Part shown: positions 1,198 to 20,549 of the stretch, one piece after another | Layout of the letters: each line of letters starts with the position of its first letter | Position numbering within the stretch: the first letter of the stretch is position 1 | The notes under the pieces: model-generated | What the model was told of the DNA's origin: nothing | The model's input: only the letters and a program-made list of their open reading frames with translations | The model's database searches: none | Made by a program: the position numbers and the translations under genes | NCBI RefSeq assembly: GCF_009754915.1 | Contig: NZ_WPIK01000006.1 | Coordinates: forward strand, 62,001-126,000 | Source of the DNA: Mucilaginibacter arboris | Lineage (GTDB): Bacteria; Bacteroidota; Bacteroidia; Sphingobacteriales; Sphingobacteriaceae | Direction of reading: 5' to 3' | DNA length: 64,000 bases

Positions 1198-4100
1198 TTA
1201 TGATTTATCTGCTTGCAGATCATTTAAAAACTGTGAAGGTGTTTTACCAAATTCTTTTTTAAAGGCTTTGGTAAAATAGGATTGTGTTTGAATGCCTACA
1301 CGGTACATTACATCGTTTAGCAAAACATCTTCGTGGGCAATGATGTAAGCTGCTTTTTTAAGTCGAAATGTTCTGACGTATTCACCGATAGACTGTCCGG
1401 AAACCTTTTTAACAATATGGTATAATTTGGTTTTGCTCATTCCCATTTCCCGGCAAATATGTTCCACATCTAAATCTGCATTACTCAGTTCCTGCTCAAT
1501 TAATTGATTAAATTGTTCTAAAAATATTTTGTCCTTATTTACATCTGCTGCTTCTGCAGTTTGGTTAAAATATTTTTTAAGGTAGCTTTCCTGCAATACT
1601 TTTCGTTGTTCTAAAATATTGTTAATGGATATTAGGAGCAGGTTTATACTTACAGGTTTAGGGAAAAAAAGATCAGCGCCCGAACTGGCGCCTTCAATTT
1701 TAGATTCGATTGCATCTTTTGCCGATAAAATAATAAACGGGATATGACTGGTATAAAATTCGCTTTTGATTTTTTTACATAAATCGATGCCATTTATTCC
1801 GGGCATCATTACATCGCTAATAATTAAGTCTGGTAAATATTCTTTTGCTTTACTTAATCCTTTCAATCCGTCGGCAGCTTCAATCACTTCATAAAATTCC
1901 CTTAAAGTGTTTTTTAAAAAGGCCCTGAGTTCATGATTATCTTCCACAATCAGGATTTTTTGTTTAACGGAATGATTGGAAATTCCCGTGAACAAATTTT
2001 CCTGTTCAGGTAAATCATGGTAATCACTCTGGTGATAAGGCGCTGTAATACTTTCCAGTCGGGTACTGATGATGGCGGAATTTGGAACCCATCGTTCCTG
2101 TGCCAGATAATCACTTTGATCAACCGGTACACAAATAATAAAATCAGAACCTTTTTCCCTTTCACTAAAAACAGAAAGGCTTCCTTTATGGATTAAAGTC
2201 AGGCTTTTTACAAAAGCCAGGCCAACACCAGAACCTAAATGAGCATCTGTGATGCGATAATACCGCTCAAATAAATGGTTGACAGAATCTTTTGATATCC
2301 CTATACCATTATCGGAAACCCGGATAAAAGCAGCCTTTTGCGGCCTGTAATTGTTATTAATAATAATTTTATTAGGATGGCTTGAATTGAAATTTACTGC
2401 ATCTGCATACAGTTCAACTGTTATTTTTCCACCAACAGGCGTGTATTTAAAAGCATTATCAATCAGGTTCAGGATTATTTTTTCCAGAATTTGCCGGTCA
2501 AACCAGGCTTCCGCAAAATTGTGCCGGATGATAATTTGAAAATCAATTTGTTTCTGCAAACTAAGATCCTTAAAATCATAAGTAATTTCAGAAATAAATA
2601 AATCAAGGTTGCCTTGCACTACACCGAGTTTGAGTGCGCCTGATTCTGCTTTTCTAAAATCCATCAGTTCATTAATCAGCAAAAGCAGCCTGTTGGCATT
2701 TCGGTGTATGGTTTCATAATGTTGTTTGAAGATTTGTTTGGTATCTTCTTCCCTAATTTTTTCTAAAGGGCCTAAAATCAAACTGAGCGGTGTGCGGAAT
2801 TCATGAGAAATATTAGTAAAAAACAGTAATTGCATCTGATGGATTTCGTCCCTTTTGTTTTCTTCGATCTTTTGCAGGTCAAGGTTCTTTTTAAAGCGAA
2901 GCGAAAAATAAACCACTGTCAAACCGGATAATATAATTAAAGACCGGAACCACCAGGTAGCCCAAAAAGGAGGCAAAATATCAATATTAATATAAGCGAT
3001 ATCAGGGTTCCAGACACCATCATTGTTTGCTGCTTTTACATAGAATTTGTAATGCCCTGGATTGAGGTTGGTATAACTGGCTTTGGTTTCTGTAGTAGGA
3101 TTATGCCAGGATTGATCGAACCCTTCTAACTTATAGGTATAATTATTGTTTTCGGGAGCTGTATAATTTAAGGTGGCAAATTCAAAAGAAAGGGTGTTTT
3201 GCTTATAATTAAGAGAAATTTGATGCGTAAGACTAATATCCTGCTGTAAAGGAGCATCTTTTTGTCCGGGAATAACAGTTTGATTAAACAGCTGAAAGTT
3301 AGTAAGGTAAACTGTTGCAACTTGTTGGTTCCGCTTAATATCTTTCGGATAAAATTTATTAAAGCCATTAATGCCGCCAAAATACATTTCCCCGTTCCCG
3401 GTTTTCATATAAGCGCCTGCTTCAAATTCTAATTCCTGCAAGCCGTCTGCCACATTGTATTTTTTGAAAGACTTGTTTTCAGGGTTTAGTTTCGTTAGTC
3501 CGTTAGAACTTGATATCCATAAATTTCCTGTTTCATCTTCCGTAATCCCTTTGATAAACTCACTGGAAAGTCCAGCTTCTTCTGTAAATAAATTGAACCT
3601 GTTGCTTCTTTTATCGAACAAAAATAAGCCTGTCTGCCCAACCCAAACCCTTCCTTTGCTATCCGTAAAAATTACCCTGATATCTGGTGTCCTTTCACTG
3701 TTTAAAAAATAATGGCTAAATTTTTTCTTGATCAGGTTATAGCAGTTCAATCCGCCATCATCCGTTCCTATCCATAAATTTTTGTCTTTATCTTCATTTA
3801 AAGTAATGATGTTGTTTCCGTAAAGACTGGTTTTCTGCTCAAAATCACTGCTGATGCGTTTAAATTGATGTGTTTTGTAGTTGAAAAGATTTAAGCCGCC
3901 ATAATAAGTTGCAATCCAGAAATTTCCTTCGCTATCTTGTAAAGTAGATTGTACAAAATTAGAACTGATCGAGTTTTTATCATTCGGGTTATTAACGTAA
4001 TGGGTAAAAGTGTATTTATCCCTGTTCATTAAATTTAAACCACCGCCCCAGGTCCCAATCCAAAAGTTTTTATACCGGTCTTCGTTAATACTTAAAACCG

Positions 4101-5394
4101 CATCAGAACTAATACTTTCCGGGCCATAAACGTTGTACCTGAAATGCTGAAAAGTATGGTTTGAAGCATTAAACAGATTTAAACCACCACCGTCTGTACC
4201 AATCCATATCCTGTTTTTATCATCTTCATAAAAGGCTTTAACATCATTATAGCTTAAACTATTGGCATTGGGCTGCTGCTGATACAATTGAAATTTATCG
4301 GCCAAAGGAGCATAAAAATTGATGCCGCCACGATGCGTTCCTACCCATAAATTATTTTGGTTATCTTTAAAAATAGCCGAAAGGGTTTTTTGAGATAAAC
4401 TAAGCGGATTGCCTAACTCATTCTGTGAATGTTCAAAATTGTTACTTTCCGGTTTATATAAATCAAGGCTCCCGTTAATGCCGCCAGCCCAGATATTTCC
4501 TTTTTGATCAGCCAATAAACTTCTGATCTGGTTAGTGCTCAGGCTAAAAATATCGCTGTTGCTATGTCGGAACTGCTGATAATTATGTGTATTTAAATTA
4601 AACGTAATCAATCCGTCATTAAAAGTACCCAGCCAGATATTTCCATTTTTATCTTCCTGGATTTTTAAAATCGCATAATTAATTTGTGTGCTTGGGTTTC
4701 CATTTAAATCAAACGTAGAAGAAAATGAACCAGTATTTCTGTTAAAAAGGCTTAACCCTTTATCAGTCCCAATCCAAAAACGTTGTTTACTATCTTCAAA
4801 CAAACAGTTTACTTGTTGGCTGGGTAAACTTTCAATCCTGTTTTTCTGATGATGAAAGTGCTTGAAAACGGTATGCTTCGCATCAAAAAGGTTTAATCCG
4901 CCGCTTTCTGTACCAATCCATAAATTGCTGTTTTTATCACTATAAATACAAGTAATATCGTTTGCAGAAACTGTATTGTTATTGAAAGGACTATGCTTGT
5001 ACCGGGTAAAAGTGTTGGTATAAGGATTAAATTTATTTAACCCATTGATGGTCCCGATCCATAAATTACCACGCAAATCTTCAGCAATACAGTTGATATA
5101 GTTATCACTGATGCTGGTTGGATCTCTAACATTATTTTTAAATACCCGGATTTTATTGCCATCGTACTTGTTTAAACCGTCCCTCGTACCAAACCATAAA
5201 AAACCTCTTTTATCCTGATAAATGGTTTCAACCGTATTGTTGGAGAGTCCCTGGGTACTGGTTAAGTGTTTGAATTTCAGGTTTAGTTTCTGGGCATGGG
5301 CAGGATAAATTGCAAGTGCAAGAAAAGTTATCAGAGAAATAAAAATCCTTTGCAAGGCATTAATGAGTTGAGCTGTACGAACAGTATTTAACAT
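1198..5394 (-). CDS. Hybrid two-component system sensor/regulator (HTCS) of the pectin/galactan locus
   Basis: This 1398-residue protein combines all parts of a Bacteroidota hybrid two-component regulator. A signal peptide (to about residue 35, ending YPAHAQ) is followed by about a dozen Reg_prop beta-propeller repeats (recurring NLWIGT, GGLNLF) to about residue 700, then a Y_Y_Y domain (about 745-805) and one membrane helix (about 810-833). The cytoplasmic half has HisKA with NISHEFRTPLS (phosphoacceptor His near 865), an HATPase with NLIDNAFKY and GVGLAF, a receiver with IISDVMMPG (Asp near 1192) and an AraC-type HTH at the C-terminus (about 1295-1395). Such proteins bind an oligosaccharide in the periplasm and activate the adjacent susC-led operon. 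Its divergent position next to susC supports control of this locus. The exact ligand is not visible; galacto-oligosaccharide is an inference from the neighbouring enzymes. Confidence 0.93.
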   Translation of the reverse strand: MLNTVRTAQLINALQRIFISLITFLALAIYPAHAQKLNLKFKHLTSTQGLSNNTVETIYQDKRGFLWFGTRDGLNKYDGNKIRVFKNNVRDPTSISDNYINCIAEDLRGNLWIGTINGLNKFNPYTNTFTRYKHSPFNNNTVSANDITCIYSDKNSNLWIGTESGGLNLFDAKHTVFKHFHHQKNRIESLPSQQVNCLFEDSKQRFWIGTDKGLSLFNRNTGSFSSTFDLNGNPSTQINYAILKIQEDKNGNIWLGTFNDGLITFNLNTHNYQQFRHSNSDIFSLSTNQIRSLLADQKGNIWAGGINGSLDLYKPESNNFEHSQNELGNPLSLSQKTLSAIFKDNQNNLWVGTHRGGINFYAPLADKFQLYQQQPNANSLSYNDVKAFYEDDKNRIWIGTDGGGLNLFNASNHTFQHFRYNVYGPESISSDAVLSINEDRYKNFWIGTWGGGLNLMNRDKYTFTHYVNNPNDKNSISSNFVQSTLQDSEGNFWIATYYGGLNLFNYKTHQFKRISSDFEQKTSLYGNNIITLNEDKDKNLWIGTDDGGLNCYNLIKKKFSHYFLNSERTPDIRVIFTDSKGRVWVGQTGLFLFDKRSNRFNLFTEEAGLSSEFIKGITEDETGNLWISSSNGLTKLNPENKSFKKYNVADGLQELEFEAGAYMKTGNGEMYFGGINGFNKFYPKDIKRNQQVATVYLTNFQLFNQTVIPGQKDAPLQQDISLTHQISLNYKQNTLSFEFATLNYTAPENNNYTYKLEGFDQSWHNPTTETKASYTNLNPGHYKFYVKAANNDGVWNPDIAYINIDILPPFWATWWFRSLIILSGLTVVYFSLRFKKNLDLQKIEENKRDEIHQMQLLFFTNISHEFRTPLSLILGPLEKIREEDTKQIFKQHYETIHRNANRLLLLINELMDFRKAESGALKLGVVQGNLDLFISEITYDFKDLSLQKQIDFQIIIRHNFAEAWFDRQILEKIILNLIDNAFKYTPVGGKITVELYADAVNFNSSHPNKIIINNNYRPQKAAFIRVSDNGIGISKDSVNHLFERYYRITDAHLGSGVGLAFVKSLTLIHKGSLSVFSEREKGSDFIICVPVDQSDYLAQERWVPNSAIISTRLESITAPYHQSDYHDLPEQENLFTGISNHSVKQKILIVEDNHELRAFLKNTLREFYEVIEAADGLKGLSKAKEYLPDLIISDVMMPGINGIDLCKKIKSEFYTSHIPFIILSAKDAIESKIEGASSGADLFFPKPVSINLLLISINNILEQRKVLQESYLKKYFNQTAEAADVNKDKIFLEQFNQLIEQELSNADLDVEHICREMGMSKTKLYHIVKKVSGQSIGEYVRTFRLKKAAYIIAHEDVLLNDVMYRVGIQTQSYFTKAFKKEFGKTPSQFLNDLQADKS
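3604..3613 (+). repeat. Coding copy of the GCTTCTTTTA core inside the HTCS gene
   Basis: An exact decamer, in the context GTTGCTTCTTTTATCG, lies in the propeller-coding part. On the gene strand it encodes DKRSNR, a different frame from most other coding copies. Confidence 0.5.
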
Positions 5395-5858
5395 GCTTTA
5401 ATACATCGCTTGATAAAAGCCGGTTTATAAAATAATTGGTAAAAAACAAATTACAGTAAGTTTAGAACTGTTTTATTAGTTTATAATGAATTATGCCATG
5501 CTTCTTTTAGCAGGCAAATTCTTTGATGTAAATGTACAACATCATAAATAATTTGGCTGCTTTTTTTGCCGGTAAAAGAAGCATTGGCATATACCATCTA
5601 CAAATGCAACAGATGGGTTTTACGATAAAAAGTATTTTTGAACATAGTTTTTGAGAATATATAACCATTTGAACCAAAATTAGGAACAAACAGACTAATC
5701 ATTATTTTAAAATTACCCTTGATTTGTCTGTGTGAATTGGGCAACAGTTTAAGGTTGATGAAAATCAATGTTTAAAAACTGATTCACCCAGGAAGGATTT
5801 TTGTTTCTTATACAAAGCCTTTTCCAGTTAATAAACCAATTTAACTAAATAATATATT
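5395..5858. other. Divergent intergenic region between HTCS and susC
   Basis: This 464-bp region should hold the promoters of the HTCS gene (minus) and the susC operon (plus), and the operator bound by the HTCS AraC domain. A TATTTTTG stretch at 5633-5640 fits the Bacteroidota -7 box on the plus strand, but I find no convincing -33 TTG at the right distance. I could not pick out a direct-repeat operator with confidence. The inverted repeat pair at 5498-5584 is inside it. Confidence 0.4.
5498..5584. repeat. Inverted pair of the ATGCTTCTTTTA repeat
   Basis: The left arm is ATGCTTCTTTTAGC (from 5498) and the right arm is GCCGGTAAAAGAAGCAT (to 5584), both with exact cores. It lies in the HTCS/susC divergent region. 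The sequence 34 nt before the left arm (AGAACTGTTTTATTAG at 5464) is weakly like the IS-type end seen at other copies. Confidence 0.65.
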
Positions 5859-8800
5859 ATGCAAATTTTTACGCTCCAATTCTGGAGAAGGTACAGCGTG
5901 TTGCTACTCTTGCTTTCGGCTTTATCCTTCTCTTCTGCTCTTGCCCAGCAAGGGATTTCTGTAACAGGTACCGTAACATCAAAAGAAGATGCTACGACCT
6001 TGCCTGGCATTACAGTTACGGTAAAAGGTACTACGCGGGGCACTGCTACCGATGCTGCCGGTAAGTACAACATCAGTGCTTCTGCAGGCAGTACGCTTGT
6101 TTTTAAGGGAATTGGATACGAAACCAGGGAAGTTTCGGTAACAGGGCCAGTGGTCAATGTAATCCTGGAAACGCACCAGCATGGATTAAACGAAGTTGTA
6201 GTTATTGGCTACGGTACAACTACCAGGCAGAATATAACTACGGCCGTTACCAAAGTTGACCCTAAAGACGTACCGCAGGCCGCTAACAGCAACATCCAGC
6301 AATTGCTTTTTGGAAGAGCGGCAGGATTGCAGGTATCGCAGGCAAGTGCGCAACCAGGCGGAGGGATCAATTTATCGATCAGGGGACGGGGCAATCCGCT
6401 TTATGTAGTAGATGGGATCCTATATCCGGGAGATGCTTTAGAACCCGGAAACGGTACAATTGCTTCCGAAACTAATGGTGTAAACCGGTCCGGTTTGGCC
6501 GGACTGAACCCGGAAGATATCGAATCTATAGAAGTATTGAAAGATGCCAGTGCTGCGATTTATGGCGTAAATGCTGGTAATGGTGTAGTTTTAATTACCA
6601 CAAAAAAAGGCAAAGCAGGTCGTTTAAACATCAGTTACAACGGTAGCTACTCTTTCGAAAAAAACTACCCTTACCTGCAACCACTTAATGCTACGCAATA
6701 CGAAACCTTGTACAATCAATTAATTTCGGACTACACAACTGGAACCAAGCCAACACCATTTACACCCGCTCAAATTGCTGCTGCAGGAGCAGGAACAAAC
6801 TGGTTAGATCAAATCTTCAGAACGGGCGCTATCAACAATCATCAGCTTACCGTTAATGGCGGCAGTGATAAAGTTACTTACTATTTTTCGGGAGGATATT
6901 ATAATGAGACCGGAACCTTAATTCATGCCGGGTTAACCAAATACACGGGCCGGGCCAACTTATCATTTAACCTTGCCAAGTTTTTAACGCTAAACACTAA
7001 TTTTACCGGAAGCAATAACAGCTATCTTAACTCTTCTTCGGGCGGGCAAACCGGCGGTTCCGGAAGCCAGGGATTTGGTATGATCCAGGCTGCTTTAGGT
7101 TATCCTGCTTATGTACCGGTAAGGGATGCGAATGGCAATTACAGCAGGTTTGGCGTAATTTCCAATCCCGTATCCTTAGGTGATATTCAGGATAACACCT
7201 ACTCTCATAGCTTAAATGCAAATATCTCTGCAGATATAAAAATCATACCGGGCGTATTAGCAGTACATGGCCTGTTTGGCGATCTGTACGAAAATGCAAA
7301 CCGCGATTTCTTTGTTCCAAGCACGGTTTATTATTACCAGACTTATCAGTCAAGAGCTTCGCAAAACTTCAGTAACCGCGAGAACCAGACGATGGAAGCT
7401 ACCATAACCTTTAAAAAGGATATTGGAAGTGCACTAAACCTGGATGCTGTTGCCGGAATGGGCCAGTACAGAAATACTTATGGCGCATTCGGGAGCCAGG
7501 GTGCCGGTGCGCCGGATGCTTTTGGTACCTCCAGTTTAATTTCTGAAACGGCTAACGTTGGTATTAGCTCCGGTAAAACCGCCAGCAAAACACGTTCTTA
7601 TTTTGGCCGGGCTTCTGCTACCTTTTTAAACAGGTATTTGCTAACGGCATCATTTCGTTACGACGGCTTTAGCTACTTCTTTCCGCAGAACAAATATGCT
7701 GCATTCCCTACCGTTTCTTTAGGCTGGAAAATTAACGAGGAAGCTTTTCTGAAAAATTCAACCGTAATCAGTCAGTTAAAGTTAAGGGCAAGTTACGGAA
7801 CAACAGGCTCTAATAATATTGGAACGGCCGCTTATGGTTTGTATGCTTCTGATGGAAATATCCTCTATTTTAACAACGGCGGAAGCACTGCTGCCACGAT
7901 TGCCCGTACAGCCATTGACCAGCCAAATCTTACCTGGCAAAAAACGATTAATAAAGATTTAGGTTTAGATTTCGGCTTTTTTAAGGATAGGATCACCGGA
8001 TCAGCAGATATATTTAAGGATGATGTAACTAACCTGCTCCGCAACAATGGACCTACAGCGCCTTTATCTTTCTTATCATCAGCACCGGTAAACGGAGGCC
8101 ATCAGGTACGGCAGGGTTTTGATATTGGTATCAATACCCAAAATGTACAGATTAAAAATTTCAGCTGGAGTTCCATCATTAATGTTTCCCATTATGTGTA
8201 TAAATGGAAAGAACGTTTTGTATATGATATCTTAGGTTCTTACGGAGGCGTTCAATATCAATCAGCTACTGATCCGGTAAATGAAAGATACTATTTTAAA
8301 ACAAACGGTATCCTACAAGTTGGACAGGCTGTTCCTGCCTCTCAACCTTCCGCCGGTGGCGCAAGGCTTCCTGGCGCCCCGATATTTGTTGATGCTAATG
8401 GCGATGGAAAGCTGGATGGTAATGACATATTTAAATTAAACCCTGATCCAAAACTAAATGTAGGTTTTGGCAACAATTTCCATTATAAACAATTTGACCT
8501 GAGCATTTTCTTTTACAGTCAGTTTGGCGGCAAGGCAACTAATTATAATTACGCCTGGGCAGATCCAACAAATATTATTTCCAGCACACAAAGCGGCACT
8601 ATCCAGGCTTTAGATGTTTACACTTCGGCTAATACTTCCGGTACCCGCCCTGGCGTAAACTATGTAGAAAGTGCTACCGGCCTTCCTCAGGGTTCAGACA
8701 TTAATATTGTAAGCACCAATTTTGTCCGTTGCCGCAACCTTACCCTGGGTTATACTTTCAATTCAAGGTTCCTGAATAAGTTTACTAAATCAGTAAGGGT

Positions 8801-8942
8801 TTTTGCTGATGCACAAAACCTATTTATTATTACTAACTACAAAGGTGTCGATCCTGAAGTTTCTTATGCTAACGTTAAAGGCGGTTATGCACCTTATCCA
8901 ATGTTCAGGACATTCTCATTCGGCTTAAAAGCAGGATTTTAA
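5859..8942 (+). CDS. SusC/RagA-family TonB-dependent outer-membrane transporter
   Basis: The 1027-residue product begins with a signal peptide (to about residue 30, SSALAQQ). A carboxypeptidase-regulatory-like domain (VTGTVTSKEDATTLPGITV) follows, then a TonB-dependent plug with the SusC signature (LYVVDGILYPG, EDIESIEVLKDASAAIYG, GNGVVLITTKKG) and a long beta-barrel ending in FSFGLKAGF with a C-terminal Phe. SusC proteins import oligosaccharides across the outer membrane, with energy from TonB, in complex with a SusD lipoprotein, which is encoded 17 bp downstream. The adjacent GH53 and galactosidase genes suggest galacto-oligosaccharides as cargo; that is inference. It is the first gene of the plus-strand operon, transcribed away from the HTCS gene. 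Confidence 0.95.
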   Translation: MQIFTLQFWRRYSVLLLLLSALSFSSALAQQGISVTGTVTSKEDATTLPGITVTVKGTTRGTATDAAGKYNISASAGSTLVFKGIGYETREVSVTGPVVNVILETHQHGLNEVVVIGYGTTTRQNITTAVTKVDPKDVPQAANSNIQQLLFGRAAGLQVSQASAQPGGGINLSIRGRGNPLYVVDGILYPGDALEPGNGTIASETNGVNRSGLAGLNPEDIESIEVLKDASAAIYGVNAGNGVVLITTKKGKAGRLNISYNGSYSFEKNYPYLQPLNATQYETLYNQLISDYTTGTKPTPFTPAQIAAAGAGTNWLDQIFRTGAINNHQLTVNGGSDKVTYYFSGGYYNETGTLIHAGLTKYTGRANLSFNLAKFLTLNTNFTGSNNSYLNSSSGGQTGGSGSQGFGMIQAALGYPAYVPVRDANGNYSRFGVISNPVSLGDIQDNTYSHSLNANISADIKIIPGVLAVHGLFGDLYENANRDFFVPSTVYYYQTYQSRASQNFSNRENQTMEATITFKKDIGSALNLDAVAGMGQYRNTYGAFGSQGAGAPDAFGTSSLISETANVGISSGKTASKTRSYFGRASATFLNRYLLTASFRYDGFSYFFPQNKYAAFPTVSLGWKINEEAFLKNSTVISQLKLRASYGTTGSNNIGTAAYGLYASDGNILYFNNGGSTAATIARTAIDQPNLTWQKTINKDLGLDFGFFKDRITGSADIFKDDVTNLLRNNGPTAPLSFLSSAPVNGGHQVRQGFDIGINTQNVQIKNFSWSSIINVSHYVYKWKERFVYDILGSYGGVQYQSATDPVNERYYFKTNGILQVGQAVPASQPSAGGARLPGAPIFVDANGDGKLDGNDIFKLNPDPKLNVGFGNNFHYKQFDLSIFFYSQFGGKATNYNYAWADPTNIISSTQSGTIQALDVYTSANTSGTRPGVNYVESATGLPQGSDINIVSTNFVRCRNLTLGYTFNSRFLNKFTKSVRVFADAQNLFIITNYKGVDPEVSYANVKGGYAPYPMFRTFSFGLKAGF

Positions 8943-8959
8943 AACTAAGAGCTAATAAC

Positions 8960-10468
8960 ATGAAAAAAATATATATCTTATTTGCAATTGCAGCCATTAC
9001 TTTAGGTTCTTGCAAAAAAGGACTTGACCCCCAGCTTTATGGTTCCTTGTCAACCACAACTTATCCTAAAACGGAAGCAGACTTTGCTACTTATGTAGCC
9101 GAGGTTTACAAACCATTTCAGTCGAAATGGGGCTACAACGACCCGGCTGGTTACGAAAATGACTGGTTTAGCCCGGAATACGGCGATATTATGATGTTTG
9201 ATTATCCTACAGATGTCTGCAATATCTTTACCGGTTATGGCGGTTTTTTTACACAGTTTAGCACTGCACAGTTTACCTTCTTACAAAATCAGGGAACCGG
9301 AAGCAATCATTTTGAGAAAATACGCTTTGTTACCCGTATCACACAAATTATTGATGACATCAATAAATCAAGCATAAGTGCTGCTTCAAAAGCTACTTAT
9401 ACTGCCGAAGCCAGAATGGCACGTGGCTGGTGCATGTATTTTTTATTGCAACTTTATGGCCCTGTTCCGGTAATTTTGGATCCCGCCAAAATTGGTACTG
9501 ATGCCGAAACTGACCTGACCAGGCCCACAAGAGCGGCATTTTTAGCTTCCATCGTAAGCGACCTTACTTATGCAGCAGCAAATCTGCCCAAAGCTCCTGC
9601 CGATTATGGCAGGTTTAACCAGGCAATTGCTTTAACTGTTTTAATGAGGACTTACATGAATGAAAAGGATTTTGTGAACGCTGAAAAAACAGGCCGCCAG
9701 ATCATGACCATGGGCTACTCGCTTGTTAATGACTATGCAAGTTTGTACAAGGAAGCAACCGAAAGAAATAACGAAACCATGTGGGCAATATCCTGCGTTC
9801 CGGATCAGGACGGCAGTGAGAACCATGCCAGCTTTAACCCCTGGGATTTTTATACTTATCCTAAAGATTATCCCGGAAACAAAGTACAAAGTTCGTTTGC
9901 AGGCGGAGATGCGCCATTTTCTGCTACCTGGAGTTTTTACAACTCTTTTGATGCCAATGATAAAAGAAGAAGTTTGTTAATTGCCAGCTATACCAACAAA
10001 AGCGGTATAGTTAAAACGCAGGCAAACGGATTAGCAGGCCCTGTAATTGCTAAATATCCCGATTTAGGTGGCTCAACCATAAATGCTTATCAAGGCAATG
10101 ATATTCCTAAAGCGCGTTTGGGCGATGTGATGTTACTGTTGGCCGAAGCGATCAACCAAAACAGCGGGCCAACTGCTGAAGCGATCGGATTAGTCAACCA
10201 GGTGCGTTTAGCGCATGGCGGAACTACTTTAGGTAATATGCCTGCCTCAGCCACAGCAGATAAAGCTTCTTTTGACAATTGGATTTTGAAGGAAGAAGGA
10301 TGGGAAACCTATTTTGAAGGCGAACGAAAAATGGATCTCGTTCGTCACGGGCAGTGGCAATCTGCTTTAGCTACAGTTGGTAAAACGGCCGGCCCTTATT
10401 TATTTCCGGTTCCAACTTATGAGATTACCGCAAGTAAAGGCAAGCTTACACAAACCCCAGGATACTGA
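8960..10468 (+). CDS. SusD/RagB-family glycan-binding lipoprotein
   Basis: The product has 502 residues with a lipoprotein signal (MKKIYILFAIAAITLGSCKK, lipobox LGSC, acylated Cys at about 18). It has SusD features: the TPR-like helical core with ARMARGWCMYFLLQLYGPVP, RPTRAAFLASIVSDL, and the late motif EEGWETYFEGERKMDLVRHGQW. SusD proteins sit on the cell surface as the lid of the SusC barrel and bind the glycan. The gene follows susC by 17 bp, the usual coupled arrangement. I see no SusE/SGBP-type gene after it, so this is the only dedicated glycan-binding lipoprotein evident in the locus. Confidence 0.95.
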   Translation: MKKIYILFAIAAITLGSCKKGLDPQLYGSLSTTTYPKTEADFATYVAEVYKPFQSKWGYNDPAGYENDWFSPEYGDIMMFDYPTDVCNIFTGYGGFFTQFSTAQFTFLQNQGTGSNHFEKIRFVTRITQIIDDINKSSISAASKATYTAEARMARGWCMYFLLQLYGPVPVILDPAKIGTDAETDLTRPTRAAFLASIVSDLTYAAANLPKAPADYGRFNQAIALTVLMRTYMNEKDFVNAEKTGRQIMTMGYSLVNDYASLYKEATERNNETMWAISCVPDQDGSENHASFNPWDFYTYPKDYPGNKVQSSFAGGDAPFSATWSFYNSFDANDKRRSLLIASYTNKSGIVKTQANGLAGPVIAKYPDLGGSTINAYQGNDIPKARLGDVMLLLAEAINQNSGPTAEAIGLVNQVRLAHGGTTLGNMPASATADKASFDNWILKEEGWETYFEGERKMDLVRHGQWQSALATVGKTAGPYLFPVPTYEITASKGKLTQTPGY

Positions 10469-10536: not shown

Positions 10537-11592
10537 ATGAAAAATACAATCAGTTTGCTTTCTATTTTGGTGTGCTGTTTTTGGGGATGTAAAAAAGATA
10601 CACCTGCCACTACCACAACGGCTACAACCACCACCACGACTGGCAGCACAGGCACAACCACTTCCACTTTTTTTGCCAAAGGGGCTGATGTAAGCTGGCT
10701 GACACAAATGGAAGCGTCCAACTATAAATTTTACAATAGCAGCGGAACCCAGCAGGATTGTATGCAGCTATTGAAAGATAAAGGCATGAACGCGATCAGG
10801 CTAAGGGTTTGGGTTAATCCAACAGATGGCTGGTGCAATACGGCCGATCTGGTCGTAAAAGCAAAAAGGGCTTCAGCCTTAGGAATGAAAATCATGATCG
10901 ACTTTCATTACAGCGATTCCTGGGCTGATCCAAGCAAACAAACAAAACCTGCTGCCTGGGTAAATCTCGATTTTAATACTTTGATTACTACCGTTCATGA
11001 TTATACGCAATCAGTTATGAATACTTTAAAAGCTAATAATATTACTCCTGATTGGGTTCAAGTTGGTAATGAAACCAACGATGGTATGCTTTGGGAAAAC
11101 GGAAGAGCATCAACCAATATGGCAAACTTTGCCAAATTAGTTTCTGCAGGATATCAGGCTGTAAAAGAAGTAAGCAGCACAACTCAGGTAATCGTTCACA
11201 TTTCAAATGGTTATGATAATAGTTTATTCAGATGGATGTTTGACGGATTAAAAAGCAACGGCGCAAAATGGGATATTATCGGCATGTCGCTCTATCCTAC
11301 TGCAAGTAACTGGCAAACTTATAATACGCAATGCCTTACGAATATGAATGATATGGTTTCCCGTTATAGTACGCCGGTAATGATTTGCGAAGTGGGATTT
11401 GCTGCTTCCGATGCTACAACAGCCAAAGCGTTTTTAACAGATTTGATCAGCAAAACAAAATCAATCAGCAACGGAAATGGTTTAGGCGTATTTTATTGGG
11501 AACCAGAAGCATACAATTGGATGAATTACGGATTAGGCGCTTTTGATCAATCAGGAAAACCGACTGTTGCGTTAGATGCTTTTGCTAATTAA
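10537..11592 (+). CDS. GH53 endo-beta-1,4-galactanase, lipoprotein
   Basis: The 351-residue enzyme cleaves beta-1,4-galactan, the side chain of rhamnogalacturonan I. The signal peptide ends in FWGC, a lipobox, so it is probably surface-anchored. A Thr-rich linker (about 22-44) leads to the GH53 TIM barrel, with GADVSWL, NAIRLRVWVNP and MIDFHYSDSWADP. The acid/base Glu is E179 in VGNETNDGMLW and the nucleophile is E285 in MICEVGFAA; both are present. The length is close to the usual bacterial GH53 catalytic domain. It is the first enzyme after susCD, as expected for the surface endo-enzyme that produces oligosaccharides for SusCD import. Confidence 0.92.
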   Translation: MKNTISLLSILVCCFWGCKKDTPATTTTATTTTTTGSTGTTTSTFFAKGADVSWLTQMEASNYKFYNSSGTQQDCMQLLKDKGMNAIRLRVWVNPTDGWCNTADLVVKAKRASALGMKIMIDFHYSDSWADPSKQTKPAAWVNLDFNTLITTVHDYTQSVMNTLKANNITPDWVQVGNETNDGMLWENGRASTNMANFAKLVSAGYQAVKEVSSTTQVIVHISNGYDNSLFRWMFDGLKSNGAKWDIIGMSLYPTASNWQTYNTQCLTNMNDMVSRYSTPVMICEVGFAASDATTAKAFLTDLISKTKSISNGNGLGVFYWEPEAYNWMNYGLGAFDQSGKPTVALDAFAN

Positions 11593-11596
11593 TACG

Positions 11597-11674
11597 ATGC
11601 TTCTTTTATCGGCTAAAAATCTTCATAATCCAGGTGAAACCGGAACAATGATTTTTAGCCGGTAAAAGAAGCAT
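11597..11674. repeat. Near-perfect inverted pair of the full interspersed repeat
   Basis: This is the clearest example of the family. The left arm is ATGCTTCTTTTATCGGC plus TAAAAATC (11597-11621) and the right arm is its inverse with a single substitution (GATTTTTAGCC at 11650, then GGTAAAAGAAGCAT to 11674). The arms are about 25 bp with a loop of about 28 nt. It begins 4 bp after the GH53 stop and ends 42 bp before the next start, so transcripts of the operon would contain the hairpin. Confidence 0.75.
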
Positions 11675-11716: not shown

Positions 11717-14320
11717 ATGAGCATAACGAAGACCACGATCAACAGGATTATTATAGGTGCATTTTTTTGTCTGTTCAGCATTAATCAGGCAAGTATCGCG
11801 CAGCAAAGCAAAAATAAACCTTTAACTTATATTGATAAAAACGGCCGCTGGAGATGGACGAAAGGAAACGAAGAAATTTATCTTTTCGGGGTAAACTACA
11901 CGGTTCCGTTTGCTTATGGTTATCGTTCTGTTAAAGCTTTGAACATCGATCTTGAAAAAGAAATTGATCAGGATGTTTATCATTTGGCAAGAATGGGAGC
12001 AGATGCTTTCCGCGTACATATCTGGGATACGGAGATAACAGATACCGCCGGAAACCTGCTGCAAAACGAACACTTAAAGTTATTTGATTATTTAATCTCA
12101 AAATTAAAAGAGCGAAATATTAAGATCATCATTACACCAATTGCTTTCTGGGGAAATGGTTATCCGGAGCGGGATGAACATACGGCTGGATTTTCATCAA
12201 AATATAATAAAGGACAGGCAACGGTAAATGAAAATGCAATCAAGGCGCAGGAAAATTACCTGAAACAATTATTGCAGCACGTAAACCCTTATACAAAGCT
12301 GAACTACCGGGACGAACCGGATATTATTGCTGCCGAATTAAATAACGAGCCAAGCCACAGTGGACCGAAAAGTGGCGTTACTGCTTACATTAACCGTTTA
12401 GCTGCTGCTGCCCGAAGCATTGGCTGGCAAAAGCCTTTGTTTTATAACATCAGCCAGTCGCCTTATTATGCTGATGCGGTTGCCAAATCAACTGTAAATG
12501 GTTTTAGTTTCCAATGGTATCCAACAGGATTAGTTGCCGGCCACGAACAAAAAGGGAATTTTCTTCCTAATGTTGACCGCTATACGATCCCTTACGATAC
12601 TATCCCGGAATTTAAGAACAAGGCGAAGATGGTTTACGAATTTGATGCAGCAGATTTATTGCAATCAAATATGTATCCTGCTGTTGCCAAAAGTTTTAAG
12701 CTTGCTGGTTTTCAATGGGTAACACAATTCGCTTACGATCCTTTGGCTACGGCTTATGCTAATACAGAGTATCAAACGCATTTTCTTAACCTGGCTTATA
12801 CACCGGCAAAAGCAATCAGTTTTTTAATTGCCAACCGCGTTTTTCATTTGCTTCCGCGAAATAAAAATTACGGAACTTATCCGGCAGACAGCACTTTTGA
12901 TGTTTATCGCGTAAGTTACCAGAATTCTTTAAGTGAGATGAACACAACGAAGGAATTTTACTATTCCGGCAGCACTTCTACTGCTCCGTTTGATGCCAAA
13001 AAACTGGAACACGTGGCTGGCGTTGGAAGTTCTGCTCTGATTAAATATCCTGGTTACGGCGCTTATTTTTTAGATAAATTGGAAAACGGCGTTTGGCGAT
13101 TGGAAGTGATGCCGGATGCAATTACGATAAGAGATCCGTTTGAAAGGCCTTCGCCATCTCGCGAAGTTGTTCATTTGCAATGGTCGGCGCAGCCCATGCA
13201 GATCAGCTTAAACGATATCGGCAACGATTTCAATATTAAAGCTGTTAATGATGGCAACAGTTATCAAACAACTGCAAAAGACGGTTCTTTCAACATAAAA
13301 CCCGGAACTTACTTACTAACTAAAAAAGGCAAAAACACCAATAATTTGCCGGTAAAAACAGTATTCGGAACGATTGGACTAAATGAGTTTGTTGCAGCAA
13401 AATCACATGATGATAAACCTTATTTAGAACATCAGCCATTTACAGAAGTAAGCGCAGGAAAAGCTTTAACAATTACCGGAAAAGCAATCAATTTAAACGA
13501 CAGCGATAAAGTTATTTTAGTAGTAAACCGAGCTTTTGGTGCGCCTTTAACGCTTGCCATGGAAAGAACAACGCCATACGATTTTAAGGCTGTAATTCCG
13601 GAAGCGAGCGTAGCTCCGGGCATATTAACTTATCGCTTGCTCGTCCAAACTCCTGATAAAAAGTATCTTGCTTTTCCTGGAAATCATTCCGGCGATCCTT
13701 TTTCCTGGGATTATTTGAATACGGATTATTGGCAAACTTTTGTTGCTGCCCCCGAGGGAAATTTAACTTTGTTTAACACCACTACCGACCGGACAAATGC
13801 TAATCCTTATTTCCCTGGTTTTGGCCGGAACGGAGGGATCAGGTTTATTGCCGGGGAAGAAACCGGGCAACTAACATTGAACATGTCGATGCCAAAACCG
13901 CAAGTTAACCAGGCAATGGGCATGCAGTTATTTGTGGGCGATAAATTACAAGGCCGAAAAACAGAGCTTGCTTCTTTTACCAGGATAATTGTCCGGGCGA
14001 GAAAAACAGCAGGTTTGGCAGTTCCGTTAAGAATAGCGCTCATCAACAAAAATGCGCAATCTTATGCTGCTTATGTTGATTTAAGCAGTGATTTCAAAAA
14101 TATAGAGATTCCTTTAACTGCTTTTAAGCCCGATTCCAGCCTGCTCTTGCCACGGCCTTATCCCGGGTTTATGCCGCTTTGGTTTAAGGCAAGCTCTTTT
14201 AACAGCTTAAATATCAGCAATACGGATAAGCTGGAAATCACAATCAATACTGGAACACTTCCGCAGAAAAACAACGAACCCTTAACTATCGAAGTAGAAA
14301 AGGTTTGGTTGCAGCAATAA
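11717..14320 (+). CDS. Secreted clan GH-A glycoside hydrolase, family unassigned (possible beta-galactosidase)
   Basis: The 867-residue protein has a signal peptide (to about residue 29, SIAQQ). The N-terminal half is a TIM barrel of clan GH-A type. MGADAFRVHIWD and IKIIITPIAFWGNGYP form early strands, E211 in AAELNNEPSHSG is the predicted acid/base after an Asn, and E308 in KMVYEFDAADL is the predicted nucleophile. The C-terminal half looks like beta-sandwich modules (about 440-867), possibly carbohydrate-binding. I do not recognise the family with certainty. GH147 (pectic-galactan beta-galactosidase) or a GH5-like group are candidates given the galactan context, but this is a guess from context. 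It lies in the operon between two GH53 genes. Confidence 0.7.
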   Translation: MSITKTTINRIIIGAFFCLFSINQASIAQQSKNKPLTYIDKNGRWRWTKGNEEIYLFGVNYTVPFAYGYRSVKALNIDLEKEIDQDVYHLARMGADAFRVHIWDTEITDTAGNLLQNEHLKLFDYLISKLKERNIKIIITPIAFWGNGYPERDEHTAGFSSKYNKGQATVNENAIKAQENYLKQLLQHVNPYTKLNYRDEPDIIAAELNNEPSHSGPKSGVTAYINRLAAAARSIGWQKPLFYNISQSPYYADAVAKSTVNGFSFQWYPTGLVAGHEQKGNFLPNVDRYTIPYDTIPEFKNKAKMVYEFDAADLLQSNMYPAVAKSFKLAGFQWVTQFAYDPLATAYANTEYQTHFLNLAYTPAKAISFLIANRVFHLLPRNKNYGTYPADSTFDVYRVSYQNSLSEMNTTKEFYYSGSTSTAPFDAKKLEHVAGVGSSALIKYPGYGAYFLDKLENGVWRLEVMPDAITIRDPFERPSPSREVVHLQWSAQPMQISLNDIGNDFNIKAVNDGNSYQTTAKDGSFNIKPGTYLLTKKGKNTNNLPVKTVFGTIGLNEFVAAKSHDDKPYLEHQPFTEVSAGKALTITGKAINLNDSDKVILVVNRAFGAPLTLAMERTTPYDFKAVIPEASVAPGILTYRLLVQTPDKKYLAFPGNHSGDPFSWDYLNTDYWQTFVAAPEGNLTLFNTTTDRTNANPYFPGFGRNGGIRFIAGEETGQLTLNMSMPKPQVNQAMGMQLFVGDKLQGRKTELASFTRIIVRARKTAGLAVPLRIALINKNAQSYAAYVDLSSDFKNIEIPLTAFKPDSSLLLPRPYPGFMPLWFKASSFNSLNISNTDKLEITINTGTLPQKNNEPLTIEVEKVWLQQ
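13970..13979 (+). repeat. Coding copy of the GCTTCTTTTA core
   Basis: An exact decamer within the clan GH-A gene, read as ELASFTRI. It has no extended match and is listed because it belongs to the interspersed family. Confidence 0.4.
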
Positions 14321-14354: not shown

Positions 14355-15752
14355 ATGATCATGAAAAAATTAGTTTTAATAGGAATACTGTTTTTATCGA
14401 CCTTTTTTTTGGCTTCGGCTCAAAATAAAATCGATACTTCTGCAGCAACAGAAATTGTGGTAATGCCTTATCAAACTACCATAATTGCAGATGGCAAAGC
14501 TAAAGCGTTAATTGTAATTAGCGTAATTGATAAACAAGGAAATGCAGTTACCAATGCTTCCAATACCATCGAATTAAGTGTTTCGGGAGATGCAGCACTG
14601 CTTTTTGCTGATCAAAAATCCAGTCGAAATTCTACTCCTGCAAAAACTCTGACCGGGAAATTATCACAAGGGAAATTAAACGTTTATGTACAATCGGGAA
14701 GGGATACCAGCCTGATCAAATTTCAGGCAAAAGGCGAAAAGCTGATTACCGGATCAACAGAAATCCGTACGGTACAACCCGGAATACCGCATCCGGTAAC
14801 AACAGTAGCGCCAATTGCAGGTAATGCCAAATTCGGGCAAAAAATATTAGGCGCTGATATTTCTTTTCTACCACAATTGGAAGCGCGCGGAATGAAGTTT
14901 TACAACGAGAACGGCAAGCAGGAAGATGTTTTGAAAATTTTGAAAGATCATGGCTTTAACTACATTCGGCTACGGCTTTTTGATCATCCTGAAAATGCAA
15001 AAGGTTATTCGCCAAACAAAGGTTTCTGCGATTTGCCGCATACGCTGGCAATGGCAAAACGTATAAAAGCGGCAGGAATGAAGTTTTTGCTCGACTTCCA
15101 TTATTCTGATACCTGGGCCGATCCGCAACGGCAAGACAAGCCCATCGCCTGGCAAAACCTAAATTTTACAACCCTGAAAGATTCTGTTTTTACTTATACC
15201 AAAAGCGTAATGCAAACTTTGAAGGATCAGGGAACAGAGCCGGATTTGGTACAAGTCGGAAACGAGATTAACCACGGTATGCTTTGGCCAGACGGCGAAA
15301 TAAACAACCTGGATAGTTTAGCCCAATTCATTTTTTCTGGTATAAAAGCAGTAAAGGCTGTTAGTCCTTCAACACCCATAATGCTGCATATTGCTTTAGG
15401 CGGACAAAATTTGGAAGCGCGCTTTTTTATAGATAATATGTTAAAGCGTAAAGTTCCTTTTGATGTGATCGGCCTTTCTTACTATCCAAAATGGCACGGA
15501 ACTTTAAGCGATCTGAAAATGAATATGGCCGATCTGGCCAAACGTTACCATAAATATGTAATGGTTGCAGAATATTCGCAGCTGAAAGAAGCCGTAAACG
15601 ATATTGCCTTTACTGCTGCCGGCGATAAAGCTTTAGGCAGTTTTATCTGGGAACCTCTAAATACCTGGGAATCCTTTTTCGACAGGAACGGAAAAGCTAA
15701 TTCCTTTTTGCAGGTTTATCCGGCGATAGCCAAAAAATACAACGTTCATTAA
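14355..15752 (+). CDS. Second GH53 endo-beta-1,4-galactanase with N-terminal Ig-like domain
   Basis: The 465-residue enzyme has a signal peptide (to about residue 22, LASAQ), not a lipobox, so it is probably periplasmic or released. Residues about 30-140 form an Ig-like/invasin-type domain (ADGKAKALIVISVIDKQGN). The GH53 barrel follows from GADISFLPQLE, with FLLDFHYSDTWADP, acid/base E304 in VGNEINHGMLW and nucleophile E406 in MVAEYSQL. It is a distinct paralogue of the GH53 at 10537 and may work on imported oligosaccharides, while the lipoprotein acts at the surface; that division is inference. A second ATG at 14361 (MKKLVLIG) is an equally good start. Confidence 0.9.
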   Translation: MIMKKLVLIGILFLSTFFLASAQNKIDTSAATEIVVMPYQTTIIADGKAKALIVISVIDKQGNAVTNASNTIELSVSGDAALLFADQKSSRNSTPAKTLTGKLSQGKLNVYVQSGRDTSLIKFQAKGEKLITGSTEIRTVQPGIPHPVTTVAPIAGNAKFGQKILGADISFLPQLEARGMKFYNENGKQEDVLKILKDHGFNYIRLRLFDHPENAKGYSPNKGFCDLPHTLAMAKRIKAAGMKFLLDFHYSDTWADPQRQDKPIAWQNLNFTTLKDSVFTYTKSVMQTLKDQGTEPDLVQVGNEINHGMLWPDGEINNLDSLAQFIFSGIKAVKAVSPSTPIMLHIALGGQNLEARFFIDNMLKRKVPFDVIGLSYYPKWHGTLSDLKMNMADLAKRYHKYVMVAEYSQLKEAVNDIAFTAAGDKALGSFIWEPLNTWESFFDRNGKANSFLQVYPAIAKKYNVH

Positions 15753-18227: not shown

Positions 18228-18379
18228 AGAGCATGTTTAAATTTTGTTCAACCTATTTTTGATACTTCTTTTATCCGGCAAAAATTTGCGGCCCTTTATC
18301 AAAAGGTAATTTAAACGCCAATTTTTTAATGGTAAAAGAAGCATTGTGGTTTTTTGTGATATAAATTTAAAGAGGCATT
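18228..18379. repeat. MITE-like element: repeat pair flanked by IS-type inverted ends
   Basis: The outer left end AGAGCATGTTTAAATTTTG (from 18228) resembles the right end of the IS remnant at 27566. The outer right end ATAAATTTAAAGAGGCATT (to about 18379) is its imperfect inverse. Nested inside are the repeat arms ATACTTCTTTTATCCGGC (18262) and GGTAAAAGAAGCAT (ending 18344), each about 34 nt from the outer end. The whole is about 150 bp and lies between the GH2 and GH42 genes. It has no coding capacity. Mobility is inferred from its structure. Confidence 0.6.
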
Positions 18380-18446
18380 TAGATAAATCCTATTTTAGTT
18401 TTTGCTAACCTTTGTTATTTATGTATCCACTTATTACAAAAGCTTT

Positions 18447-20549
18447 ATGATGAAGCACTACTTTAAATTATCGTTCCTGCTGCTATTCCTCCTAATGAAA
18501 AAAAATGTTTCTGCTCAAAATGCAGACCGCTTTTTTGCAAAAAAGGATTTGATGACCATCGGCTCCTACTATTATCCAGAACAATGGCCGCACGAATATT
18601 GGGAGCGCGATATTAAAAAAATGGCAGAAGTTGGGTTTGAGTTTACACATTTTGGCGAATTCGCATGGGCTTTTATTGAGCCGGAAGAAGGCAAGTTTGA
18701 TTTTAAATGGCTGGATGAAGCTGTTGAACTGGCTTCTAAAAATCATATTAAAGTGATTTTGTGTACATCTTCTCCAACACCTCCAGTATGGTTAAGTCAG
18801 AAACATCCCGAAATTTTAATGGTAAACGAAACAGGAACAACGATGCAGCATGGATCCCGGCAGCAAGCTTCCTGGTCAAGTTCGGTTTACCGGCAGTATG
18901 TGTCCAAAATGGTAGAAGCTTTGGCCAAGCATTATGCCAATGATAAACGCATCTGGGGTTGGCAACTGGATAACGAACCTTCGCATTACGGACAGTATGA
19001 TTATAGTCCCGCAGCACAGGAAAGTTTTCAGAAATGGTTAAAAGCAAAATACAAAAATATTGATACACTTAATAAAACCTGGGGAACAGCTTTCTGGAGC
19101 ATACGTTATTCAGATTTTAATCAGGTCCGTATTCCTAACGCAAAAGAACTGATTGCGCAACCAAATCCGCATGCTGTGCTTGATTTTAAACGCTTTTCTT
19201 CGGATGAAATAACTGATTTTTTAGGAATGCAATACAAAATATTACGTCAGCATATTTTACCCGAACAATGGATTACAACGAACTTAATGCCCGATCATGC
19301 TCCTGTTGATCCGGAACGGATGACTAATCTTGATTTTGTAACTTATACCAAATATTTGGTTGCCGGTTATGATAAAGGTTTAGGGCCGCAAGGTTTCAGA
19401 ATGGGTTCTCCTACAAGTATTGCTTTTGCCAATGATTTTTTTCGGTCTATTAATGGAACAACAGGTGTAATGGAACTACAACCCGGTCAGGTAAACTGGG
19501 GCAAGTTCAATCCGCAGCCAATGCCTGGAGTAGTACGCATGTGGATATGGCACGCCTTTGCCGGTGGAAATAAATTTGTGTGCAACTATCGCTTTAAACA
19601 ACCACTAACCGGTGGCGAGCAATATCATTACGGCATTATCAGTACAGATGGCGTAACGCCAAGTACAAGCGGATTGGAATATATCAAAGTGATCAAGGAG
19701 ATGAAAGATTTAAGGAAATCTTACGATCCGAATGAAAAAATGCCAAAGTCTTATCAATCCAAATTAACTGCCGTTTTGTACAATCCGGATAACCGTTGGG
19801 AAATGGACAATCAACCTCAAACTAATCAATGGGATTTTATGCAGCATTTAATGCGTTATTATGGCGCTTTAAAACAGTTTGGCGCTCCTGTTGATGTTAT
19901 TACAGAGGATAAAGATTTCTCCAAATATCCGGTTATGGTTGCTCCGGCGTATCAACTGCTGGATGCAAAGTTGGTGGCCAGATGGAAACAATACGTCGAA
20001 AACGGCGGACATTTAGTTCTATCATCCCGTACCGGACAAAAAGACCGCAATGGTAAACTTTGGGAAATGAAATGGGCAGAACCTATTTATAATTTAATCG
20101 GTGCTAAAGTTTCTTTTTATGATCTCCTGCCCGATTCTGTTCAGGGAACGATAAAAATGGGAACAAAGAGCTTTAAGTGGAATAATTGGGCTGATATACT
20201 GGAACCTTTTGCAGGAACAGAAGTTATCGCAACTTATAGCAGTCAGTTTTATGCAGGAAAAGCAGCTGTTATCTCTTGCAAATTGGGCAAAGGAACTGTC
20301 ACTTATGTCGGTGCGGATACAGATGACGGTTCTTTAGAAAAAGCAGTGCTAAAAAGAGTATATCAACAAGCAGGGATTGTTAGTGAAGATTTGCCGGAAG
20401 GCGTAGTAATTGACTGGCGCGACGGTTTTTGGGTTGGCGTTAATTATTCCGGAAAACCTTATCAAGTTCCTGTTCCTGCTCAAGCTAAAATTTTAATTGG
20501 AACAAAAACGCTTAAACCAGCTGATGTGATTGTTTGGAAAGATAAATAA
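18447..20549 (+). CDS. GH42 beta-galactosidase
   Basis: The product is about 700 residues from the ATG at 18447; an adjacent ATG lies at 18450, and a longer TTG-started frame from 18402 adds an implausible leader. A signal peptide (MKHYFKLSFLLLFLLMKKNVSAQ) precedes the GH42 barrel, with YYYPEQWPHEYWERD, GEFAWAFIEPEEG and SSPTPPVWL. The acid/base Glu is in WQLDNEPSHYG (codon at 18975) and the nucleophile is in TGVMELQPGQVNWG (codon at 19473). A beta-galactosidase trimerisation domain follows (about 480-640). With GH2 it would finish hydrolysis of galacto-oligosaccharides. It is separated from the GH2 gene by 306 bp that hold a MITE-like element, so it may have its own promoter. Confidence 0.93.
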   Translation: MMKHYFKLSFLLLFLLMKKNVSAQNADRFFAKKDLMTIGSYYYPEQWPHEYWERDIKKMAEVGFEFTHFGEFAWAFIEPEEGKFDFKWLDEAVELASKNHIKVILCTSSPTPPVWLSQKHPEILMVNETGTTMQHGSRQQASWSSSVYRQYVSKMVEALAKHYANDKRIWGWQLDNEPSHYGQYDYSPAAQESFQKWLKAKYKNIDTLNKTWGTAFWSIRYSDFNQVRIPNAKELIAQPNPHAVLDFKRFSSDEITDFLGMQYKILRQHILPEQWITTNLMPDHAPVDPERMTNLDFVTYTKYLVAGYDKGLGPQGFRMGSPTSIAFANDFFRSINGTTGVMELQPGQVNWGKFNPQPMPGVVRMWIWHAFAGGNKFVCNYRFKQPLTGGEQYHYGIISTDGVTPSTSGLEYIKVIKEMKDLRKSYDPNEKMPKSYQSKLTAVLYNPDNRWEMDNQPQTNQWDFMQHLMRYYGALKQFGAPVDVITEDKDFSKYPVMVAPAYQLLDAKLVARWKQYVENGGHLVLSSRTGQKDRNGKLWEMKWAEPIYNLIGAKVSFYDLLPDSVQGTIKMGTKSFKWNNWADILEPFAGTEVIATYSSQFYAGKAAVISCKLGKGTVTYVGADTDDGSLEKAVLKRVYQQAGIVSEDLPEGVVIDWRDGFWVGVNYSGKPYQVPVPAQAKILIGTKTLKPADVIVWKDK

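What the first reader, a model, noticed from the sequence alone, without database searches (positions are those of the whole stretch)
11717..14320. Galactan-locus enzyme with clan GH-A catalytic residues but no clear family
The 867-residue protein has an acid/base E211 after Asn and a nucleophile E308, and a long beta-sandwich C-terminus. It sits between two GH53 endo-galactanase genes. It may be a GH147-type or an undescribed galactan-active family.
Basis: inference. Interest (0 to 1): 0.6.

Follow-up and report, generated by a model that had tools for sequence, protein, structure and literature searches.

The report
GH147-type beta-galactosidase in galactan locus
The gene encodes an ordinary but poorly annotated sugar-cutting enzyme, a relative of a gut-bacterial beta-galactosidase family (GH147), in a locus that lets this Bacteroidota species feed on the galactan side chains of plant pectin.

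Summary
An 867-aa ORF lies at 11717-14320 between two GH53 genes, inside a HTCS/SusC/SusD/GH53/GH53/GH2/GH42 locus. Asn210-Glu211 and Glu308 are invariant in 67 sequences and end strands 4 and 7 of a predicted (beta/alpha)8 barrel; its nearest solved folds are GH5 mannanases. "No clear family" is not right. The protein is 40% identical over its full length to a protein of a genome that matches Bacteroides ovatus ATCC 8483. That protein sits with SusC/SusD, GH53 and GH2 in a galactan locus. A published CAZyme table gives that strain exactly one GH147 gene, and its genome has exactly one member of this family. Of 19 family genes in 18 genomes, 13 lie within 10 kb of a GH53 gene. Best reading: a periplasmic GH147-type exo-beta-1,4-galactosidase. 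The formal CAZy link could not be closed. The founding sequence is not held, and the accession printed for it maps to the wrong place unless one digit is wrong. Activity was not tested. New member of a known kind; low interest.

The parts
11717..14320 (+). The protein under study: 867 aa, GH147-type clan GH-A glycoside hydrolase
   Evidence: ORF; family alignments A1/A2; AlphaFold2 model
11717..11803 (+). Signal-peptide-like N-terminus (residues about 1-29), no lipobox, so probably periplasmic
   Evidence: Read from sequence; lipobox pattern absent in all 20 aligned sequences
11819..12856 (+). Catalytic (beta/alpha)8 barrel, residues about 35-380
   Evidence: Model m46d04171f73d; aligns to GH5 mannanases 9m20, 1rh9, 8gf3 with Z 28.7-29.3, rmsd 3.2 A, 310-315 residues
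12347..12349 (+). Codon of Glu211, proposed acid/base (motif NNEP)
   Evidence: Invariant in 67 of 67 sequences; aligned with the NE motif of GH5 mannanase 3pz9
12638..12640 (+). Codon of Glu308, proposed nucleophile (motif YEFD)
   Evidence: Invariant in 67 of 67 sequences; at the end of predicted strand 303-309. Not placed by any sequence alignment to a characterised nucleophile
12884..13336 (+). First C-terminal beta-sandwich, residues about 390-540
   Evidence: Secondary structure of the models
13409..13747 (+). Ig-like domain, residues about 565-677; missing from the 740-759 aa relatives
   Evidence: Matches the Ig-like domain of PPAD structures, Z 10.6-10.9; gap in L004, L015, L016
13748..14317 (+). 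Jelly-roll domain like carbohydrate-binding modules, residues about 678-867
   Evidence: CBM11 6r3m Z 15.7, rmsd 2.9 A over 155 residues; CBM30, CBM16 and the galactan-binding CBM61 further down the list
1198..5394 (-). Hybrid two-component sensor/regulator (HTCS)
   Evidence: Pfam Reg_prop, Y_Y_Y, HisKA, HATPase_c, Response_reg, HTH_18
5859..8942 (+). SusC-like TonB-dependent importer
   Evidence: NCBIfam TIGR04056 714 bits, over its cut-off
8960..10468 (+). SusD-like glycan-binding protein
   Evidence: Pfam SusD_RagB
10537..11592 (+). GH53 endo-beta-1,4-galactanase, lipoprotein-like N-terminus
   Evidence: Pfam GH53 335 bits; sequence FWGCKKD near the N-terminus
14355..15752 (+). Second GH53, with an N-terminal Glyco_hydro2_C5 (Ig-like) domain
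   Evidence: Pfam GH53 315 bits, PF18565 61 bits
15768..18140 (+). GH2 enzyme, GalA/GalB-like
   Evidence: Pfam GH2 domains; NCBIfam GalA 1.4e-105, below its cut-off
18402..20549 (+). GH42 beta-galactosidase
   Evidence: Pfam Glyco_hydro_42 418 bits

Best explanation
The protein belongs to the family that contains the single GH147-type enzyme of the Bacteroides ovatus galactan locus. It is a retaining clan GH-A glycosidase: Glu211 acts as acid/base and Glu308 as nucleophile in a (beta/alpha)8 barrel. It works in the periplasm as an exo-beta-1,4-galactosidase. The lipoprotein-like GH53 enzyme cuts pectic beta-1,4-galactan at the surface, SusC/SusD import the galacto-oligosaccharides, and this enzyme, with the second GH53, GH2 and GH42, takes them down to galactose. 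The C-terminal CBM-like domain probably helps hold oligosaccharide. Shown by computation: family, fold, conservation, locus. Inferred: substrate, exo mode, cell location, roles of the two glutamates, GH147 label.
For: 40% identity over 99% of the length to the B. finegoldii and the presumed B. ovatus proteins, both in the order HTCS - this gene - SusC - SusD - SusE-like (DUF5111/5114) - GH53 - GH2. Genome G839 fits B. ovatus ATCC 8483: it encodes a protein identical over 466 residues to PDB 3zmr, which by my knowledge is BoGH5A of that species; the contig is 6,472,489 bp. It has exactly one member of this family, and PMC7761036 Table 3 lists exactly one GH147 for B. ovatus ATCC 8483, two in two other B. 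ovatus isolates that also have two GH53, and none in B. fragilis, which has no GH53. GH147 is described as beta-galactosidase in PMC6499787 and PMC11739564; the latter's references include Luis et al. 2018 on pectic glycans. 13 of 19 family genes in 18 genomes lie within 10 kb of a GH53 gene. E211 and E308 invariant in 67 sequences. Clan GH-A fold match.
Against: No CAZy profile and no GH147 reference sequence was available. The accession printed for the B. ovatus GH147 protein, ALJ46469.1 (PMC12654650), interpolates to 2.21-2.30 Mb, where no beta-galactosidase-like ORF was found, whereas the family member lies at 6.33 Mb. The conflict disappears only if one digit is wrong: ALJ49469 falls in the range 49460-49479 that I predict for the gene. 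Six of 18 genomes have the gene without a GH53 nearby, and Segatella has a galactan locus with only GH53 and GH2. Closest solved folds are mannan-active, not galactan-active.
Confidence: 0.83

Rival explanations
1. It is a galactan-active clan GH-A enzyme but not GH147: an undescribed family (or unassigned GH5-like group) with the same role in galactan loci.
For: Pfam and NCBIfam have no model for it; the printed GH147 accession ALJ46469.1 does not map to the family member in the presumed B. ovatus genome.
Against: B. ovatus ATCC 8483 is reported to have exactly one GH147 and the matching genome has exactly one member of this family, in the galactan locus, where GH53 and GH2 are the only other hydrolases. 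A one-digit error in the accession would place it on the gene.
Confidence: 0.13
2. It is a GH5 member (near subfamily 7) acting on beta-mannan or another beta-1,4-glycan, carried in this locus by chance.
For: phmmer and profile matches to GH5 mannanases over about 100 residues (3pz9 4.5e-8; 4qp0 1.9e-13); best structural matches are GH5 mannanases, Z 29.
Against: Query is below the PF00150 cut-off (20.5 against 23.5); sequence similarity ends soon after the NEP motif; 13 of 19 family genes lie beside GH53 genes; recurrent grouping with SusC/SusD/GH53/GH2 in many genera.
Confidence: 0.03
3. It is endo-acting (a second kind of endo-galactanase) or removes a decoration (for example terminal arabinose or 1,3/1,6-linked galactose) rather than being an exo-beta-1,4-galactosidase.
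For: The locus already has GH2 and GH42 enzymes that could do the exo step; Segatella and B. thetaiotaomicron are described as degrading galactan with GH53 and GH2; CBM-like domain.
Against: Published activity of GH147 is beta-galactosidase; the exo mode rests on that and on my recollection of Luis et al. 2018.
Confidence: 0.12

Closest known systems
GH147 beta-galactosidase of Bacteroides ovatus (Luis et al. 2018; recalled as BACOVA_05493)
   Same: Same length (867 and 869 aa), 40% identity end to end to the only family member of the presumed B. ovatus genome, same partners (HTCS, SusC, SusD, GH53, GH2), E211/E308 conserved
   Different: Different gene order (here after GH53, there between HTCS and SusC), different SusC/SusD lineage, extra GH53 and GH42 genes here; identity of the GH147 reference not confirmed by sequence
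GH5 subfamily 7 beta-mannanases (for example 3pz9, 1rh9)
   Same: (beta/alpha)8 barrel, NE motif, Z about 26-29 over some 300 residues
   Different: 12-17% identity in the structural alignments; sequence match ends soon after the acid/base; below PF00150 cut-off; three extra C-terminal domains
Galactan locus of B. thetaiotaomicron (BT4667-BT4673)
   Same: GH53, GH2, SGBP, SusC/SusD, HTCS
   Different: Published count of GH147 in B. thetaiotaomicron is zero

Membership tests
GH147 | Sequence homology over the catalytic domain with the founding B. ovatus enzyme (CAZy criterion) | tested here: inconclusive
   40% over full length to the single family member of a genome matching B. ovatus ATCC 8483; published table gives that strain one GH147; but the reference sequence is not held and the printed accession ALJ46469.1 maps elsewhere unless one digit is wrong
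GH147 | Match to the CAZy/dbCAN GH147 profile | not testable with these tools
   No dbCAN library; Pfam and NCBIfam hold no model that matches
GH147 | Clan GH-A (beta/alpha)8 barrel with acid/base after Asn on strand 4 and nucleophile on strand 7 | tested here: met
   Model and conservation; the clan assignment of GH147 itself is from my own knowledge
GH147 | Beta-galactosidase activity | not testable with these tools
   Needs purified enzyme
GH147 | Found in pectic-galactan loci (supporting, not defining) | tested here: met
   13 of 19 genes in 18 genomes within 10 kb of a GH53 gene; B. finegoldii and presumed B. ovatus loci
GH5 | Pfam PF00150 at or above its gathering score | tested here: not met
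   20.5 bits against 23.5; some relatives just pass, 23.9 and 25.1 bits
GH5 | GH5 barrel fold | tested here: met
   Z 29 to GH5 mannanases; the fold is shared by all of clan GH-A and does not define GH5
GH53 | Pfam PF07745 match | tested here: not met
   No match at E 0.001, while both neighbours match strongly

The most novel reading that the evidence does not exclude
The protein and its relatives form a galactan-active clan GH-A family that is not GH147 and has no characterised member, or a GH147 branch with a changed specificity (for example branched or arabinose-capped galactan) that makes it non-redundant with the GH2 and GH42 enzymes of the same locus.
Probability: 0.15. Interest if true: 0.45.

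Novelty: new member of a known kind. Interest (0 to 1): 0.16.

Why it matters
It is a routine enzyme of pectic-galactan breakdown. It is useful mainly as an annotation fix: Pfam and NCBIfam miss this family, RefSeq-style annotation calls members 'cellulase family glycosylhydrolase' or 'hypothetical protein', and no close sequence relative has a solved structure. The relatives range from Bacteroidota to Alteromonadales, so a structure of this protein or of a shorter relative lacking the Ig-like domain would serve the whole family.

Tried and rejected
Mannanase identity: rejected as the main reading because similarity ends soon after the acid/base motif and the locus is galactan-type. Finding the GH147 reference through papers: Luis et al. 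2018 is not held under DOI or PMC id; 'BACOVA_05493' occurs in no held paper; only one held paper prints this GH147 accession. Mapping that accession ALJ46469.1 by interpolating between published tag/accession pairs led to 2.21-2.30 Mb: fructan locus, Na/H antiporter, GH29, housekeeping genes, no beta-galactosidase-like ORF. Locating B. thetaiotaomicron as a negative control failed: no genome that I could recognise as it was seen in the Bacteroides sample. A profile comparison to GH5 enzymes aligned only the N-terminal half with the NEP motif, and the GH5 set used was noisy.

Full report
What is there. The ORF at 11717-14320 (+) is 867 aa with an ATG start. Upstream are a divergent HTCS regulator, SusC, SusD and a GH53; downstream are a second GH53, a GH2 and a GH42. 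Pfam gives the protein only PF00150 (Cellulase) below its cut-off, and NCBIfam gives nothing.

The family. Whole-genome searches found full-length relatives at about 33-53% identity in several families of the class, in 12 of 124 genomes of one family of the order, in 34 of 150 genomes of a genus that I take as Bacteroides because it holds a 99%-identical copy of the B. finegoldii gene, and on large plasmids of two Alteromonadales. In an alignment of 67 sequences 63 positions are invariant, among them N210, E211, P212, Y307 and E308. A tree places the protein in a supported group of nine sequences; the B. finegoldii and Proteiniphilum proteins lie in another supported group of the same family. 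Three relatives of 740-759 aa lack the stretch corresponding to residues about 565-690.

Fold. The AlphaFold2 model (pLDDT 87, pTM 0.89) has a (beta/alpha)8 barrel at about 35-380. Its best structural partners are GH5 mannanases and mannosidases, Z 28-29 with rmsd 3.2-3.5 A over 308-325 residues; GH35 and GH42 beta-galactosidases appear at Z 22-23. Such a match shows the clan, not the substrate. E211 follows strand 203-207 and E308 ends strand 303-309, the positions of acid/base and nucleophile in clan GH-A. E211 is also aligned with the NE motif of 3pz9; E308 rests on its position and invariance. Modelled alone, the C-terminus shows a beta-sandwich, an Ig-like domain and a jelly roll whose best matches are CBM11 structures (Z 15.7), so 'long beta-sandwich C-terminus' is right but can be divided.

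Locus. GH53 was searched in 18 genomes that hold 19 family genes. Twelve genomes (13 genes) have a GH53 within 10 kb; two have GH53 elsewhere and four have none. With at most five GH53 matches per genome of about 4-7 Mb, chance would give roughly 0.1 such genes by my arithmetic. The protein has a signal-peptide-like start without a lipobox, as have all 20 aligned sequences, while the first GH53 has a lipoprotein-like start. This suggests surface cutting by GH53 and periplasmic action of the present enzyme; it is an inference.

Link to GH147. The plasmid collection holds a B. finegoldii record in which a 40%-identical protein, annotated 'cellulase family glycosylhydrolase', lies in the order HTCS - this gene - SusC - SusD - DUF5114 - GH53 - GH2. 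I therefore take G839 as B. ovatus ATCC 8483. It has one member of the family, 869 aa, 40% identical over 876 aligned columns, with the same neighbours; GH53 and GH2 are the only other hydrolases in that locus. PMC7761036 Table 3 lists GH147 counts of 1 for B. ovatus ATCC 8483, 2 for two other B. ovatus isolates (with GH53 rising from 1 to 2), and 0 for B. thetaiotaomicron and B. fragilis. My recollection that the founding member is BACOVA_05493, at the end of a six-gene galactan locus, fits the six genes found, but it is a recollection.

A loose end. PMC12654650 prints ALJ46469.1 for the B. ovatus GH147. Published tag/accession pairs (bovatus_03808 = ALJ48413, bovatus_04772 = ALJ49360, Bo3128 = ALJ47736) and the small xylan locus Bovatus_01723-01732 put that number at 2.21-2.30 Mb, where I found no beta-galactosidase-like ORF. 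Counting ORFs from the likely ALJ49360 gene (the match to BoSusB in that stretch, 70.5% identical) to the family member gives 49460-49479, and ALJ49469 is one digit from the printed number. I read this as a probable misprint. It is not proof, so the formal membership row stays inconclusive.

Verdict. It is a new member of a known kind with a small annotation value.

Noticed in passing
window, e.g. 11597-11610 (+), 11661-11674 (-), 5498-5584, 18262-18344: A dispersed genus-specific repeat: ATGCTTCTTTTAYC occurs 1357 times in the own genome, 1479 and 711 times in two genomes of the same genus, and 0 or 1 times in each of 23 other genomes; 43 near-copies in the window against 1.0 expected. Often followed by something like CCTAAAAAT and often in inverted pairs that could form hairpins. 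Two Y1-transposase-like genes exist in the genome, so a REP/RAYT-type element is possible; many other copies stand alone, some inside genes.
   Followed up: partly
window 21550-26541 (-): Cluster next to the galactan locus on the other strand: two GH28-type pectinases and a GH106 rhamnosidase, so rhamnogalacturonan and its galactan side chains may be handled side by side.
   Followed up: no
window 5859-10468; L039, L051: The SusC/SusD pair here is close (45-55%) only to those of L039 and L051 and about 23-37% to the pairs in the other family loci: the same enzyme travels with different importer lineages.
   Followed up: no
L071 (NZ_OY725908.1): A 105-kb circular 'plasmid 6' of B. finegoldii carries the galactan locus, chromosome-like genes and mef(En2)/lnu(AN2); it may be a misassembled piece of chromosome.
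   Followed up: no
PMC12654650, legend of the figure on beta-galactosidase families: The accession printed for B. ovatus GH147 (ALJ46469.1) points to a part of the chromosome without a beta-galactosidase-like gene; ALJ49469.1 would fit.
   Followed up: partly
window 18402-20549: The GH42 ORF is listed from a TTG; an in-frame ATG some 15 codons later (MMKHYFKLS...) with a signal-peptide-like sequence is the likelier start.
   Followed up: no
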